A stretch of DNA of 64,000 nucleotides. Origin: Salinigranum rubrum (lineage in GTDB: Archaea; Halobacteriota; Halobacteria; Halobacteriales; Haloferacaceae). Location: assembly GCF_002906575.1 (NCBI RefSeq), contig NZ_CP026311.1, forward strand, positions 1 to 64,000. The letters run 5' to 3'. Every line of letters starts with the position of its first letter. The first letter of the stretch is position 1. The notes beneath the pieces were generated by a model. That model worked only from the letters and a program-made list of their open reading frames with translations, made no database searches and was not told where the DNA came from. The position numbers and the translations under genes are program-made. Shown here piece after piece: positions 3,458 to 48,214 of this stretch.

Positions 3458-4179
3458 CAGCGCGGGCGAAAGGCGCTGTCAGCAGTGTCAAGCAGAGCGC
3501 ACACCAGCAGGCGACCAAGCGTATCGGCCACTACGGGACGTCGGGAAAGTTGGACTCGGCACAGGCCTCGTTGTCTGAGGCGCAAACCGACCACAATACC
3601 GCGTCGTCGCAGGCGAAGTTCATCCAGAACGCGATGGCGAACGAGGAGATAGACATGGCCGAGGCCAAGAAGCAGGGCTTCCTCAACGCCGAGCCGATGG
3701 AGAACCAGAAGCCGGAGTTCAAGACCGACCCCGATACCCTCGACCGGAAGATGTCGTATATGGGGACGGATGGAGCGAGTCGGTCGGTCAACCTCTCGCA
3801 GAAGTTCCGGGCGGCCAAGGCCGACCAGCAGGATGCCAGCGAGCGCATCACGACCGCCGAGAGCGACATCGCAACGAACGCTGTACGGAACCGCCGTGTG
3901 GAGACCGGCAAGAAGGGCGTGAGCACCGGGAAGAAAGCAGGGACGTTCACGGCGAAGACTGGCGCGGCCGCGATGATCGGCGGGGTTGGCGGCAACTCCT
4001 ACCTCGCGTATTCCGCGGGCCGCCGGGCTGGTAAGCCAATGATCGGCTCGAATAGTCCACAGGAGACGCCAGATCCAAATCGTCGGCTTTCAGAATTTGG
4101 GCAGGCGAGTGCTGGTCAGGCCCAAGCTGCGAAGAGCGGCGACATCGGCTCGGAAAGCTCGAGCGGAGGTCAGTTCTAG
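3454..4179 (+). CDS. Probable C-terminal part of the TrbL-like protein
   Basis: This reads as 241 residues from an ATG that overlaps the previous stop (ATGA). It is hydrophilic, with long helical, probably coiled-coil stretches (for example KLDSAQASLSEAQTDHNTA). The same frame is open upstream of the ATG and encodes a Gly/Ser/Ala-rich linker that matches the composition at the end of the membrane part. The simplest reading is that this is the soluble cytoplasmic tail of a roughly 635-residue TrbL-like protein rather than a separate gene. If the ATGA overlap is genuine, it would be a small coupled accessory protein of the conjugation apparatus. I do not recognise it as an independent family. 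Confidence 0.55.
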   Translation: MTARAKGAVSSVKQSAHQQATKRIGHYGTSGKLDSAQASLSEAQTDHNTASSQAKFIQNAMANEEIDMAEAKKQGFLNAEPMENQKPEFKTDPDTLDRKMSYMGTDGASRSVNLSQKFRAAKADQQDASERITTAESDIATNAVRNRRVETGKKGVSTGKKAGTFTAKTGAAAMIGGVGGNSYLAYSAGRRAGKPMIGSNSPQETPDPNRRLSEFGQASAGQAQAAKSGDIGSESSSGGQF

Positions 4180-4426
4180 AGTCGTCTCGGGCGGTTGGTA
4201 TTCGAAATCGTTCCGTAGCGACCTCGAAAAGCCACTTGACGTTCGTCAAACCCGCTATGGTGGCTCTGCTGCGGGCCGGTGTGGAGTTTAAATACAAATA
4301 CCGGTCTAAGGGTGGTGAGATACCCGGCAAGGCGTCTCACTAATCCCTGGCGCGTTACCAGCGGGTTGTACGGATACTCGCTCGCAGGCCACCCGAACCA
4401 ACCAACGACATCATAGAAAACAACCA
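4180..4426 (+). promoter_or_regulatory. Intergenic region with TATA-like box
   Basis: This 247-bp gap separates the transfer genes from the AAA gene. It contains an AT-rich TATA-like stretch (TTTAAATACAAATA) at about 4287-4300, on the + strand. The box lies well upstream of the ATG at 4427, which implies a leader of roughly 100 nt. No convincing small gene was seen here. Confidence 0.35.
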
Positions 4427-45313: not shown

Positions 45314-46606
45314 ATGACACCGCCCAAACCCCAGGATACAGACCCTCAAGACGGCACTCCAGAGTCACGGGGGGACGCGGTGGCCGTCCTCGACGTCCTC
45401 GAGGACTACCTTACTGACAAAGGGAAAGGACGAGATGGCGAGAGCGGACAGTATCGACGACACGCCGACCGCGAAGTGAATCGTTTCGTGGAGTTCCTCG
45501 CCGGCGACCGATCGACGTCGTCGGTGACCTTCGGGGAGCTGACCGTCGAATCCTTCCGGGAGTACGCTCGCTACCTCTCTCGACAGGGGTGGACTGAGGG
45601 CACAGTCCGGAACTACTACGCCCACGTCTCCGGGTTCTGTGGGTGGGCGGCACGTGAGGGCTATCTGTCGGGGAATCCCGCCCAACGCCGTCGTGCGAAA
45701 GAGCCACTGCCCGAGGACACCGGGCGAAAGAGCGGGGAACAGCAGGCGTGGACGGCCGAGCAGCGCGAGCAACTCCTCTCGTACGTCGACGCACGAGCAC
45801 ACGAGGCAATTGACGACGTCGCGAGCGACCGCCAGGCCGCAATCAAAGCCTGTCGCGACCGGGCGCTCGTCTACGTCCTCTGCTTTACCGGGGTTCGGGG
45901 TGCGGAGATACTGGCCGACGACGGTGATGATCGACGCGGTCGGGATGGTCTCCGTTGGGCGGACGTCGCCCTCGAGGACAACAGTATCCAGGTCCTTGGG
46001 AAGAGCGGGAAGTGGGACGATAGACCACTTCCTGAGCCAGCAGTACCCTCGATTGAGCGCGTTCGGAGTGTGCTCGCTCCTTCGAGTGAGAACTGGCCGG
46101 TGTTTCCGACACTCGATTACCCGACGCTCGTACAGACGTTCACACTGGCGATGACTAGTCGGGGATACGACATCGGAGAGGTCGAGAACCTCCGCCGAGA
46201 GCAGGTGAACGACGGTGAGGCGTCCGTTATCGAACTCCTCGCGGACTATGACATCGCACCACCGGCGTTGACGACCCACGGCGCTCGGGCGGTTCTGAAA
46301 CGTCTCACGGACGAGGCGGGCATCGAACTGGACGACAAGCACGGGTATCTCGCGCCGCACGGGGCCCGACGCGGTGTTGGTGAGGTCCTCGTCAGGGCGT
46401 ATGGCCACGCTGAGGCGGCTCGCTACCTCGACAATTCCGAGGAGATCGTTCGCGAACACTACTCACATATCGAGGCCGGAGAGCTGGCCGACCGCGCTGA
46501 AGCTGCCTTCGCCGAACACCGTGAGAAACAACGACGCCCAGCTAAGAGGGGAGCTGAGGAACACACAGAGGACAGTGGGGTGGATACAGAGTCGGAGACA
46601 GGGTAA
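45314..46606 (+). CDS. Tyrosine recombinase/integrase
   Basis: 430 residues with an N-terminal SAM-like core-binding domain (about 25-115, VEFLAGDRSTSSVTF; YYAHVSGFCGWAAREG) and a catalytic domain. Readable active-site residues are the first Arg in FTGVRGAEIL, the H-x-x-R block in LAPHGARRGVGEVLV, and the final Tyr in EHYSHIEAGELAD. These enzymes integrate plasmids or viruses or resolve dimers. The C-terminal tail is charged. A motif shared with two other places follows the stop (46631-46645). Confidence 0.88.
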   Translation: MTPPKPQDTDPQDGTPESRGDAVAVLDVLEDYLTDKGKGRDGESGQYRRHADREVNRFVEFLAGDRSTSSVTFGELTVESFREYARYLSRQGWTEGTVRNYYAHVSGFCGWAAREGYLSGNPAQRRRAKEPLPEDTGRKSGEQQAWTAEQREQLLSYVDARAHEAIDDVASDRQAAIKACRDRALVYVLCFTGVRGAEILADDGDDRRGRDGLRWADVALEDNSIQVLGKSGKWDDRPLPEPAVPSIERVRSVLAPSSENWPVFPTLDYPTLVQTFTLAMTSRGYDIGEVENLRREQVNDGEASVIELLADYDIAPPALTTHGARAVLKRLTDEAGIELDDKHGYLAPHGARRGVGEVLVRAYGHAEAARYLDNSEEIVREHYSHIEAGELADRAEAAFAEHREKQRRPAKRGAEEHTEDSGVDTESETG

Positions 46607-46692: not shown

Positions 46693-47169
46693 TCAGTAGC
46701 GATCGAGCAGTTCTTCGATGTACGCGTCGAGGTCGTCGTGGTTGAGTCCGGCTCTCATGACCGCTTCGAGGAAGTGCTTGTGTTTCTCGATCTCCCCCTT
46801 GTCTTCCATGACTCGTTGGGCATTCGCTTTCGTGTATGCTTGATTTAGTTCCTCTTGGAACTCTTCAGTGAGGTACACAGCGTACTTCGTCCGGGTTCTG
46901 CGGGTGCTGTTCGGGTCGGGGTCGGGGCCCCGGGTCTTCTCTGTAGAACTTGTCTCACCCCCGGAACTTGTCGAACTCGTAGAACTCGTAGAACCCGTGT
47001 CACCTGTCTCCACTCGTTCTCCTTCATCACCGGCTTCATCATCGGTCTCCTGGGGCCGCTTCCCGACCCGACCACTGAGAGCGTTGCCGAGAGCGTCATC
47101 AAAATCTCCGCCGGACTGCTGATCAGCGTCTTCGGATTCGGTTTCCTCTTCGGGTTCTCGGTCAGTCAT
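46693..47169 (-). CDS. ParA partner protein (probable centromere-binding)
   Basis: 158 residues: an acidic disordered first half with a Ser/Thr repeat (TGSTSSTSSTSSGG) and a basic helical C-terminal domain (RTRTKYAVYLTEEFQEELNQAYTK...). It overlaps parA by 4 nt and so is the second gene of the partition operon, the place of the ParB/CopG-type adaptor. The C-terminal part could be a ribbon-helix-helix domain. The Ser/Thr repeat is encoded by 9-bp units (TAGAACTCG-like) that resemble the repeats upstream of parA, so part of the centromere may lie inside the gene. Confidence 0.6.
   Translation of the reverse strand: MTDREPEEETESEDADQQSGGDFDDALGNALSGRVGKRPQETDDEAGDEGERVETGDTGSTSSTSSTSSGGETSSTEKTRGPDPDPNSTRRTRTKYAVYLTEEFQEELNQAYTKANAQRVMEDKGEIEKHKHFLEAVMRAGLNHDDLDAYIEELLDRY
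46971..46997. repeat. Tandem 9-bp repeats inside the ParA-partner gene
   Basis: Three adjacent units, TCGAACTCG, TAGAACTCG and TAGAACCCG, with related TGTAGAACTTG and CGGAACTTG just to the left. They resemble the GTAGAAC/GTTCTAC elements upstream of parA. Confidence 0.55.
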
Positions 47170-47972
47170 GCGAAGTAGTCCTCCACGGCACGTGCGAGGC
47201 CATCGTAGGTCTCACGGACTTCCTCGGCCTTCTGTTCACGATGGCGATTCTCCGGTTCATAGGTGTAGATACTGTGGTTTTGAGCAAACGCGCCTTCGAT
47301 GGCGACTGTCTCTGGGATGGTGAACGTGTGCTCTTCGCCGATGTTCTTGTGGAACCACTCGAGGCGGTCCTCACTGATGTTGTTCCGAGTTACAGCATTG
47401 ACCACCGCTCCTATGATCCCGATATCTGTTTGGAACTCGCGTTCGAGCTGGTTGATTTCCTGCGTAAGGAGATTCATCGAGAACGTCGCGATTGGATCTG
47501 CACGTGAGACGAACAAGACATTGCGTGCGGCCAACAGCGCGCCGTCTGCGAGGGGTCCCATATTGGGCGGTGAATCAATGAGCACGTAGTCGTAGTCGTG
47601 CTCAATTCGGTCGAGTACCATTCCCAGGCGCTCCTGAGTCCGGCTGAGTGACCAGAGCTCACGTTCGAGCTGGAAATTGCTCCCGTGGGCTGGTAGGACG
47701 TCGAACTCGCTGTGTGAGACGATGAGGTCATTTACCTCGTCGAATCGGTCAATATCCGTCATGATGTCGTAGAGGGACCGATCCTCACTCACGTAGTATT
47801 CGCGCAAACCCAGCGTGATGGTGATGAACCCCTGGGGGTCTGCATCGACGACGAGCACGTCGCTATCCTCCTCAAGTCCCTCAGAGACGGCGAGCGCCCC
47901 TGCGAGATTGATCGTCGTCGTACTCTTTCCGACACCGCCTTTCTGCATCGAGATCGAGAGCCGATGTGTCAT
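47166..47972 (-). CDS. parA: ParA-family partition ATPase
   Basis: 268 residues with the deviant Walker A KGGVGKST (residues 11-18), VVDADPQGFITITLGL (A') and YVLIDSPPNMGPLA (Walker B), the hallmarks of Soj/ParA ATPases. It positions plasmid copies by forming ATP-dependent patches on nucleoid DNA, stimulated by the partner bound to the centromere. It lacks an N-terminal HTH, so it is of the small (type Ib-like) ParA class. Iteron-like repeats fill the promoter side. Confidence 0.92.
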   Translation of the reverse strand: MTHRLSISMQKGGVGKSTTTINLAGALAVSEGLEEDSDVLVVDADPQGFITITLGLREYYVSEDRSLYDIMTDIDRFDEVNDLIVSHSEFDVLPAHGSNFQLERELWSLSRTQERLGMVLDRIEHDYDYVLIDSPPNMGPLADGALLAARNVLFVSRADPIATFSMNLLTQEINQLEREFQTDIGIIGAVVNAVTRNNISEDRLEWFHKNIGEEHTFTIPETVAIEGAFAQNHSIYTYEPENRHREQKAEEVRETYDGLARAVEDYFA

Positions 47973-48214
47973 GGGTATCTCGTGTCCTCTGTAGAACCTG
48001 TGTGATACAGGTACTTCCCGTTCTACAGGTTATGTGGAGAGGTACTCGTAGAACGCGTATAAATCTACGTCAGACACGTTCTTTGGGTTATACACGATAT
48101 ACAGGTAACACGGGTTCTTCGAGTTATACGCAAAGATTCGTGCTCCTCCTTGGCCTTACTACCGTAATACAAACGTTCCACACGGAACCCGTGTTCTACG
48201 GGTTCTTCGACTAG
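47973..48214. repeat. Iteron-rich region upstream of parA (candidate parS and promoter)
   Basis: GTAGAAC at 47991 and 48048 and its complement GTTCTAC at 48020 and 48193 alternate with longer related units ending in GTTATAC (48075-48093, 48109-48129) and GGTTCTTCGA (48201-48210). A minus-strand TATA (GATTTATACG, about 48055-48064) is embedded. This is the usual layout for a partition site that also lets the partner protein repress the par operon. Confidence 0.6.

What the first reader, a model, noticed from the sequence alone, without database searches (positions are those of the whole stretch)
46940..48212. Centromere-like repeats both upstream of parA and inside its partner gene
GTAGAAC/GTTCTAC-type units fill the parA promoter side and reappear as 9-bp tandem units within the partner gene, where they encode its Ser/Thr linker. 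One DNA repeat may thus serve as binding site and as protein linker, a dual use rarely noted.
Basis: partly seen in the sequence, partly recalled or inferred. Interest (0 to 1): 0.55.

Follow-up and report, generated by a model that had tools for sequence, protein, structure and literature searches.

The report
Partition gene whose linker encodes centromere
In a widespread family of salt-loving archaeal plasmid-segregation genes, the DNA that codes for a floppy stretch of the segregation protein appears to double as a set of binding sites, probably the protein's own, and the two change together between plasmids.

Summary
Confirmed and extended. The window holds a haloarchaeal parA and an overlapping partner gene. 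Units of 9 bp (ACGGGTTCT type) lie around the parA promoter and recur as four contiguous in-frame 9-mers (two imperfect), plus one more, in the partner's Ser/Thr linker. Relatives occur in at least 185 of 392 genomes searched in the order. In diverged relatives the upstream unit differs and the linker often carries that same different unit, so the residues change.

Over 120 loci, linker DNA matches its own parA-upstream DNA more than synonymous recodings, other groups' upstream DNA, or parA (6465 vs 3728-4400, 2730, 2945; without the largest clade 2863 vs 2174-2290, 1610, 1819). Group permutation P = 5e-5. Upstream DNA has a 9-bp period. In the largest clade, linker amino acids vary more and synonymous sites less than in the C-domain; the window's closest relatives lack that signal.

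Best reading: linker-coding DNA is selected as binding sites, probably the partner's own. Binding, fold and partition role are inferred. Embedded sites have precedents (lambda O, SCP2 ParT); a family-wide array that rewrites the linker looks new.

The parts
47166..47972 (-). parA, 268 aa Walker-type ATPase (AAA_31)
   Evidence: PF13614, E 2.5e-33
46693..47169 (-). partner gene, 158 aa; acidic N-terminal part, Ser/Thr linker, conserved C-terminal domain; overlaps parA by 4 nt
   Evidence: relatives in at least 185 of 392 order genomes
46963..46998 (-). linker array: four contiguous in-frame 9-bp units ACGGGTTCT/ACGAGTTCT/ACGAGTTCG/ACAAGTTCC (TGS-TSS-TSS-TSS), the last two imperfect
   Evidence: first two also by motif scan; first three by pattern
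46945..46953 (-). further in-frame unit ACAAGTTCT (TSS)
48184..48206 (.). upstream cluster: AGAACCCGT (48198-48206) and AGAACACGG (48189-48197) on -, 9 bp apart, plus an opposite-strand unit (48184-48192)
   Evidence: partly 42
48110..48118 (-). upstream unit AGAACCCGT
48074..48082 (-). upstream unit AGAACGTGT
48058..48075 (-). promoter-like element GTCTGAC-N6-TTATA shared by many par operons whose repeats differ; units adjoin it on both sides
48050..48058 (+). upstream unit AGAACGCGT next to the TATA-like box
48007..48033 (-). upstream units ATAACCTGT (48025-48033) and AGTACCTGT (48007-48015), 18 bp apart
47993..48001 (+). upstream unit AGAACCTGT nearest parA
46696..46893 (-). C-terminal domain of the partner (residues about 93-158): short segment before a conserved Tyr, then predicted helices; candidate DNA-binding domain
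   Evidence: alignments; AF2 model mean pLDDT 66.7

Best explanation
This is a ParA-type partition operon of a haloarchaeal replicon whose small partner protein most likely binds 9-bp, direction-bearing units as its centromere/operator. One array surrounds the parA promoter; a second lies about 1 kb away inside the partner's own gene, where 9 bp = 3 codons lets any number of units sit in frame. The encoded Thr/Ser/Asp/Glu/Asn-rich tripeptides form a flexible linker between the N-terminal region and the C-terminal domain. SHOWN: units in both places, 9-bp period in non-coding and linker DNA, covariation of linker and upstream units across diverged systems, synonymous constraint in the largest clade. 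INFERRED: the partner is the binder, its C-terminal domain is ribbon-helix-helix-like, the units work in repression of parAB and in building the segregation complex, and the two arrays bracket the operon.
For: 120 distinct loci in 14 groups: 6465 linker-part 9-mers match the own upstream DNA, vs 3728 (synonymous resampling), 4400 (synonymous permutation within the linker part), 2730 (upstream of other groups), 2945 (parA/C-domain windows); own exceeds each control in 13 of 14 groups. Without the largest clade, 63 loci: 2863 vs 2174, 2290, 1610, 1819. One representative per group, 18 groups, 12 random draws: permutation P = 5e-5 (floor of the test) in 12 of 12; own upstream is the best match in 6 to 12 of 18 groups, chance 1. 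Dinucleotide-shuffled upstream DNA reaches the observed value in 5 or fewer of 100 shuffles at 22 of 40 selected loci. Autocorrelation of non-coding upstream DNA peaks at lags 9, 18, 27, 36 (0.327, 0.320, 0.303, 0.289; other lags 0.23-0.28); lag 9 is the top of lags 4-14 in 10 of 14 groups upstream, 13 of 14 in the linker part, 2 of 14 in parA and 2 of 14 in the C-domain. Largest clade, 31 gap-free loci: linker amino-acid diversity 0.158 vs 0.059, synonymous diversity 0.083 vs 0.211. Three of the four partner loci read in the window's own genome (five matched; one was not listed) carry three different units (ACGGGTTCT, GAAACGAAC, TCAGATACA), each matching its own upstream. The MPRG subfamily has no 9-bp period either upstream (lag 9 0.246) or in the linker part (0.312, no higher than lags 3, 12, 18), and 11 of its 13 genes show no clear excess over synonymous permutation.
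Against: No binding data. The fold is not established: 2 of 26 members hit Pfam RHH_7, best 1.3e-3, 0 of 21 with C-domains alone; AF2 model weak; Foldseek and VIA-align gave no usable match. Group g13 shows no excess, g8 and g10 little; outside the largest clade only 23 of 63 loci pass the strict permutation at 10 of 200 or fewer, 17 of 63 the resampling at 2 of 200, 28 of 63 the swap at 5%. L012, one of my by-eye examples, does not pass alone (28 vs 26.9), nor does L016 by permutation. Two MPRG genes (L164, L174) do show an excess. Synonymous diversity is not lower in the N-part of g1 (ratio 1.02) and g5 (1.08) and is higher in g3 (1.97); not lower in the linker of the window and its three closest genes (0.197 vs 0.177). 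The 57 g0 loci are one clade and dominate the raw totals.
Confidence: 0.75

Rival explanations
1. The linker is selected only as a flexible hydrophilic protein segment; its DNA resembles the upstream repeats because both arose by duplication or slippage from one ancestral array, with no present function in the linker DNA.
For: Linkers are low-complexity and tandem; local duplication is a common source of such repeats; synonymous diversity is not reduced in the window's own closest relatives nor in g1, g3, g5 as a whole.
Against: Units differ between groups yet match within loci; excess over synonymous recoding with the protein held fixed; in g0 amino acids vary more but synonymous sites less than in the C-domain, the reverse of protein-only selection.
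Confidence: 0.15
2. The units are recognised at both places by something other than the partner (ParA, a host factor, or the neighbouring tyrosine recombinase).
For: Binding is untested; a recombinase gene adjoins par in the window and in L009, L010 and L012; ParA-type proteins bind DNA.
Against: L011 and L014-L016 have no recombinase annotated in the stretch shown, although these records begin at par, so mainly one side is seen; a single host factor would not explain three different units in one genome.
Confidence: 0.15
3. Selection acts on the RNA (translation or mRNA binding by the partner), not on duplex DNA.
For: Synonymous constraint cannot by itself tell DNA from RNA.
Against: Matching units lie upstream of the TATA-like box (48110-48206, box at 48058-48075) and in both orientations, so many are probably not in the parA transcript. 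Transcript starts were not mapped here.
Confidence: 0.06

Closest known systems
pSM19035 ParABS (delta ParA, omega ribbon-helix-helix ParB, 7-bp heptad parS arrays)
   Same: Small partner, short non-palindromic tandem units in direct and inverted order overlapping the par promoters; one unit per dimer, at least four contiguous units needed for full ParA activation (PMC9499535, passages read).
   Different: Unit is 9 bp, not 7; here an array also lies inside the partner's coding sequence as its linker; no sequence relation was detected, and omega itself was not compared directly.
SegAB of Sulfolobales
   Same: Archaeal ParA homologue plus small partner with unstructured N-terminus, sites upstream of the ATPase gene (PMC12284271, passages and section 7 read).
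   Different: SegB sites are 13-bp palindromes scattered over the chromosome; the window has no excess of that motif and none in this locus. Large Metallosphaera SegBs have 14-aa tandem repeats that section 7 discusses as protein; whether these encode sites was not tested here.
Phage lambda O protein / ori inside gene O
   Same: Replicon protein whose own binding iterons lie inside its gene; extra iterons add residues to the protein (PMC4488673, PMC7466680, passages read).
   Different: Replication initiator, 19-bp iterons, DNA bound by its amino-terminal half; here partition, with 9-bp units that rewrite the linker across a family.
SCP2 ParATS (Streptomyces)
   Same: parS lies inside the coding sequence of the centromere-binding protein ParT; the authors recoded it without changing the protein (PMC12260392, passages read).
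   Different: One 18-bp inverted repeat, a ParB-like protein; no array shared with the parA promoter is mentioned in the three passages read.
repABC replicons
   Same: Some parS sites were hypothesised to be positively selected although inside coding sequences (PMC9040568, passages read).
   Different: Sites downstream of repC; not a linker-coding tandem array of the binder's own gene.

Membership tests
ParA-type (Walker) partition operon | deviant Walker A ATPase of the ParA/AAA_31 family | tested here: met
   PF13614 E 2.5e-33, KGGVGKST near the N-terminus
ParA-type (Walker) partition operon | small gene for a partner directly downstream, co-oriented | tested here: met
   4-nt overlap in the window; 152 of 176 loci with a partner hit have ParA by the first motif, 17 of 19 retried by a looser motif
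ParA-type (Walker) partition operon | cis site needed for stable inheritance | not testable with these tools
   arrays present, function untested
Ribbon-helix-helix centromere-binding protein (omega/ParG/SegB type) | ribbon-helix-helix fold of the partner | tested here: inconclusive
   RHH_7 weak in 2 of 26, in 0 of 21 C-domains; weak AF2 model with helices 14-33, 42-52, 59-69 after a short non-helical segment; no usable fold match
Ribbon-helix-helix centromere-binding protein (omega/ParG/SegB type) | array of short repeats at the par promoter | tested here: met
SegAB | 13-bp TCTAGA-S-TCTAGA palindrome upstream of the ATPase gene | tested here: not met
   8 matches with up to 3 mismatches in the window, 14.4 expected, none between 42267 and 57157
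Self-embedded site (lambda O / ParT type) | binding site of the product inside its own gene | tested here: inconclusive
   embedded units and their selection supported; binding by the product untested

The most novel reading that the evidence does not exclude
A self-encoding centromere: across haloarchaeal plasmids the sequence of the partition protein's linker is largely dictated by the DNA specificity of the same protein. When the binding specificity shifts, the array is rewritten in the non-coding DNA and in the gene, and the linker changes residue by residue as a by-product, with the CG or CA core of the unit kept at codon positions 2-3 in the groups read by eye.
Probability: 0.5. Interest if true: 0.85.

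Novelty: new variant of a known kind. Interest (0 to 1): 0.72.

Why it matters
Partition specificity sets which plasmids can share a cell. If protein linker and centromere are one DNA sequence, specificity and linker must evolve together, which gives a natural series of matched protein/site pairs, several in one genome, for reading a recognition code. It also warns that low-complexity linkers may be shaped by DNA, not protein, selection, and it offers parS candidates for a very widespread archaeal family (at least 185 of 392 genomes searched in the order) for which the listings of my paper searches showed no study.

Tried and rejected
Structure: AF2 of the C-domain with the six sequences allowed by the tool gave a weak model; Foldseek and VIA-align found nothing usable (an absence there excludes no fold). 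Profile searches of the PDB, NCBIfam and Pfam did not name the partner; PHROGs has relatives of unknown function (phrog_26668, 19 of 21 members). Viral contigs: in four scans no stretch passed as a relative. The single genome-contig scan gave 5 loci, so most loci come from the genome search.

A per-locus 9-mer motif finder run on 21 loci gave a clear unit for the window, L009, L010, L012, L015, L045, L093 and a few others, but picked compositional or palindromic motifs in several loci (such as L046, L127, L128, L145); I relied on k-mer matching with controls instead. Synonymous-diversity tests by group were mixed and negative for the window's closest relatives.

Of 152 loci, 121 had distinct partner genes and L011 was dropped for only 95 nt of upstream DNA, leaving 120. 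The synonymous test used the 31 of 57 g0 loci of equal length. The dinucleotide-shuffle control used 40 selected loci of 137; the group permutation left out loci with under 300 nt upstream except L014.

Literature: the listings showed by title and abstract no report of this haloarchaeal partner family or of a linker-coding centromere; I read passages (of one also a section) of 9 papers; the library lacks most subscription papers. That a parS also lies in B. subtilis spo0J is recalled, not read.

Full report
What was checked. The finding claims that GTAGAAC/GTTCTAC units lie upstream of parA and recur as 9-bp tandem units in the partner gene's Ser/Thr linker. Both are there. The window is from contig C3 of a 4.97-Mb, 6-contig genome; the closest partners in the plasmid collection are on haloarchaeal plasmids of Salinirubellus salinus (92.5% identity) and Haloplanus sp. 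GDY1 (78.9%). parA is 47166-47972 (-), the partner 46693-47169 (-), overlapping by 4 nt. The linker reads ACG GGT TCT ACG AGT TCT ACG AGT TCG ACA AGT TCC, then after three codons ACA AGT TCT. In the window 9 of 19 matches to ACRNGTTCTAC (up to 1 mismatch) fall within 46943-48208, against 7.1 expected in all 64 kb. In the own genome the exact core TTCTACRNGTT has 21 places, 5 on the 198-kb contig C3, 4 of these in this locus (reversed-pattern control 11 places).

The decisive comparison. Reading relatives side by side showed that in diverged systems the upstream unit is different and the linker carries the same different unit: ACGGGTGAT/ACGGGTAAT type in Haladaptatus (linker T-G-D/H; L011, L014), CGGATAAT in Haloarcula pelagica (T-D-N; L012), ACGCAAATT type in Halobaculum magnesiiphilum (T-Q-I; L015). 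The largest clade has GAAACGAAC (E-T-N), and another replicon of the window's own genome has TCAGATACA (S-D-T). The linker residues follow the DNA unit. In the units read by eye a CG or CA dinucleotide sits at codon positions 2-3 of a Thr or Ser codon.

Statistics. A profile of 26 partners found relatives at E <= 1e-5 in 185 of 392 genomes of the order; only the best first-look candidates of each genome were scored, so this is a lower bound. From 180 sequences (179 loci, some overlapping, and the window), 176 had a partner hit, 152 also a ParA by motif, 121 distinct partner genes, 120 with at least 120 nt of upstream DNA, in 14 groups at 60% C-domain identity. The statistic is the number of linker-part 9-mers with at most one mismatch to the own upstream DNA (up to 450 nt), both strands. 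Total 6465; synonymous resampling from the locus's own codons 3728; synonymous permutation within the linker part 4400; upstream DNA of other groups 2730; windows of parA and the C-domain 2945. Own exceeds each control in 13 of 14 groups; g13 is the exception, and g8 and g10 are marginal. By locus, 72 of 120 pass the synonymous resampling at 2 of 200 or fewer, 76 of 120 the permutation at 10 of 200 or fewer, 85 of 120 the swap at 5% or less. Most of this comes from one clade, g0 (57 loci). Without it, 63 loci give 2863 against 2174, 2290, 1610 and 1819, and 17, 23 and 28 of 63 pass the three criteria. So outside g0 the excess is there in sum, but many single loci do not carry it alone; L012, an example above, is one of these (28 against 26.9 by permutation), while its sister L050 passes (41 against 27.5; 6 of 200). 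For the window: 60 against 30.2, 34.0, 27.3 and 29.8. To weigh clades equally I drew one representative per group (18 groups, including added ones) and permuted upstream regions among linkers: P = 5e-5, the floor, in 12 of 12 draws; own upstream was the best match in 6 to 12 of 18 groups where chance gives 1. Dinucleotide-shuffled upstream DNA gives 23.8 (largest 48) for the window's 60; at 22 of 40 selected loci 5 or fewer of 100 shuffles reach the observed value.

Nine-base period. Averaged over 14 groups, non-coding upstream DNA (last 300 nt) has autocorrelation 0.327, 0.320, 0.303 and 0.289 at lags 9, 18, 27 and 36 against 0.23-0.28 elsewhere, and no 3-base period. The linker part has 0.408, 0.403, 0.380 and 0.361 at the same lags, above its 3-base background of about 0.30. 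Lag 9 is the highest of lags 4-14 in 10 of 14 groups upstream and 13 of 14 in the linker part, but in 2 of 14 in parA and 2 of 14 in the C-domain, whose averages show the 3-base period only. A non-coding 9-base period cannot come from codons.

Selection on DNA. In 31 equal-length g0 loci, linker codons 15-57 have amino-acid diversity 0.158 (C-domain 0.059) but synonymous diversity 0.083 (C-domain 0.211); for residues with four or more codons 0.092 against 0.290. Several Thr positions are ACG in 29 to 31 of 31. Results the other way: over whole N-terminal parts the synonymous ratio N/C is 0.64 (g0), 0.65 (g6), 0.79 (g2), 0.92 (g4), 1.02 (g1), 1.08 (g5, the window's group) and 1.97 (g3), and 1.12 in the MPRG subfamily. 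In the window and its three closest relatives the linker is not depressed (23 of 117 = 0.197 against 66 of 372 = 0.177). The claim of synonymous constraint therefore rests on g0, with weaker support in g6 and g2.

Internal controls. The MPRG subfamily (304-aa ParA, gap of 2 nt) has no 9-bp period upstream (lag 9 0.246) and none above the codon background in the linker part (lag 9 0.312; lags 3, 12 and 18 0.35, 0.355, 0.316). Of its 13 genes scored, 2 exceed the synonymous permutation clearly (L164 and L174; 1 and 2 of 200) and 11 do not. The own genome had five profile matches, four of them listed: C3 (window), C5 (L177) and C4 (L178) each match their own upstream DNA (60, 52 and 66; 0 of 100 shuffles each), and C2 (L179, MPRG type) does not (19; 75 of 100). 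L178 passes the synonymous permutation less clearly (14 of 200), its relative L141 clearly (0 of 200). So three replicons of one cell carry three different units, as expected if the units set partition specificity.

Mechanism. By established knowledge of ParA systems, a partner gene behind parA with a repeat array at the promoter is most likely the centromere-binding protein and repressor. In pSM19035 each omega dimer binds one 7-bp unit and at least four contiguous units are needed for full ParA activation (PMC9499535, passages); the window's linker carries four contiguous units, two of them imperfect. I infer that the partner binds both arrays and that they bracket the operon. The C-domain has a short segment around an invariant Tyr followed by helices, compatible with a ribbon-helix-helix protein but not shown: Pfam, PDB-profile and fold searches were weak or empty. 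The SegB palindrome of Sulfolobales is not in this locus.

Known or new. Sites of a protein inside its own gene are known: lambda ori in gene O, where extra iterons add residues (PMC4488673, PMC7466680), parS inside SCP2 parT (PMC12260392), parS in coding sequences of repABC replicons (PMC9040568), all seen as passages. I found no account of a tandem array that makes up a partition protein's linker and is rewritten with the binding unit across a family; the searches are listed under Tried and rejected and the library is incomplete. I rate it a new variant of a known kind.

Noticed in passing
window 48058-48075 (-); upstream of parA in many loci: A strand-specific element GTCTGAC just upstream of a TATA-like box is present in 68 of 137 par loci (reverse complement in 2), in at least half the loci of 14 of 19 groups, although the 9-bp units differ; it is absent from all 57 g0 loci. 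Perhaps a shared promoter element of a host regulator.
   Followed up: partly
G000 C1:208501, C1:867348, C1:4224501, C2:115214 (L180, L181, L184, L185): The exact GTCTGACNNNNNNTTAWR element has 9 places in the genome (reversed control 0). Three precede par operons; of the other six, four precede ORFs (a CopG-type ribbon-helix-helix protein, a DUF7518 protein, a GTPase, another ParA) and two (L182, L183) none that I could see. It might link plasmid partition to host cell-cycle control. The four papers listed for this 7-mer with haloarchaea do not suggest it by title or abstract.
   Followed up: partly
window 45314-46606; L009, L010, L012: A phage-integrase SAM-like recombinase gene adjoins the par pair in the window and three related plasmids, perhaps for dimer resolution.
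   Followed up: no
PMC12284271, section 7: Large Metallosphaera SegB proteins have 14-aa tandem repeats between N-terminus and ribbon-helix-helix domain, discussed there as a beta-helix; the DNA could be checked for embedded SegB sites.
   Followed up: no
partner N-termini in A2: Many partners begin with a short conserved stretch with Leu and Arg (such as MSDPKDELGQRFEDRR), a candidate ParA-activating motif by analogy (recalled); the g0 clade has a different one (WGDASGIEGNY).
   Followed up: no
MPRG-type loci (e.g. L179, L151): Upstream DNA of the 13 MPRG loci has a raised autocorrelation at lag 12 (0.314) rather than 9 (0.246); these loci are close relatives, so it may be one sequence feature, or a different unit length.
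   Followed up: no
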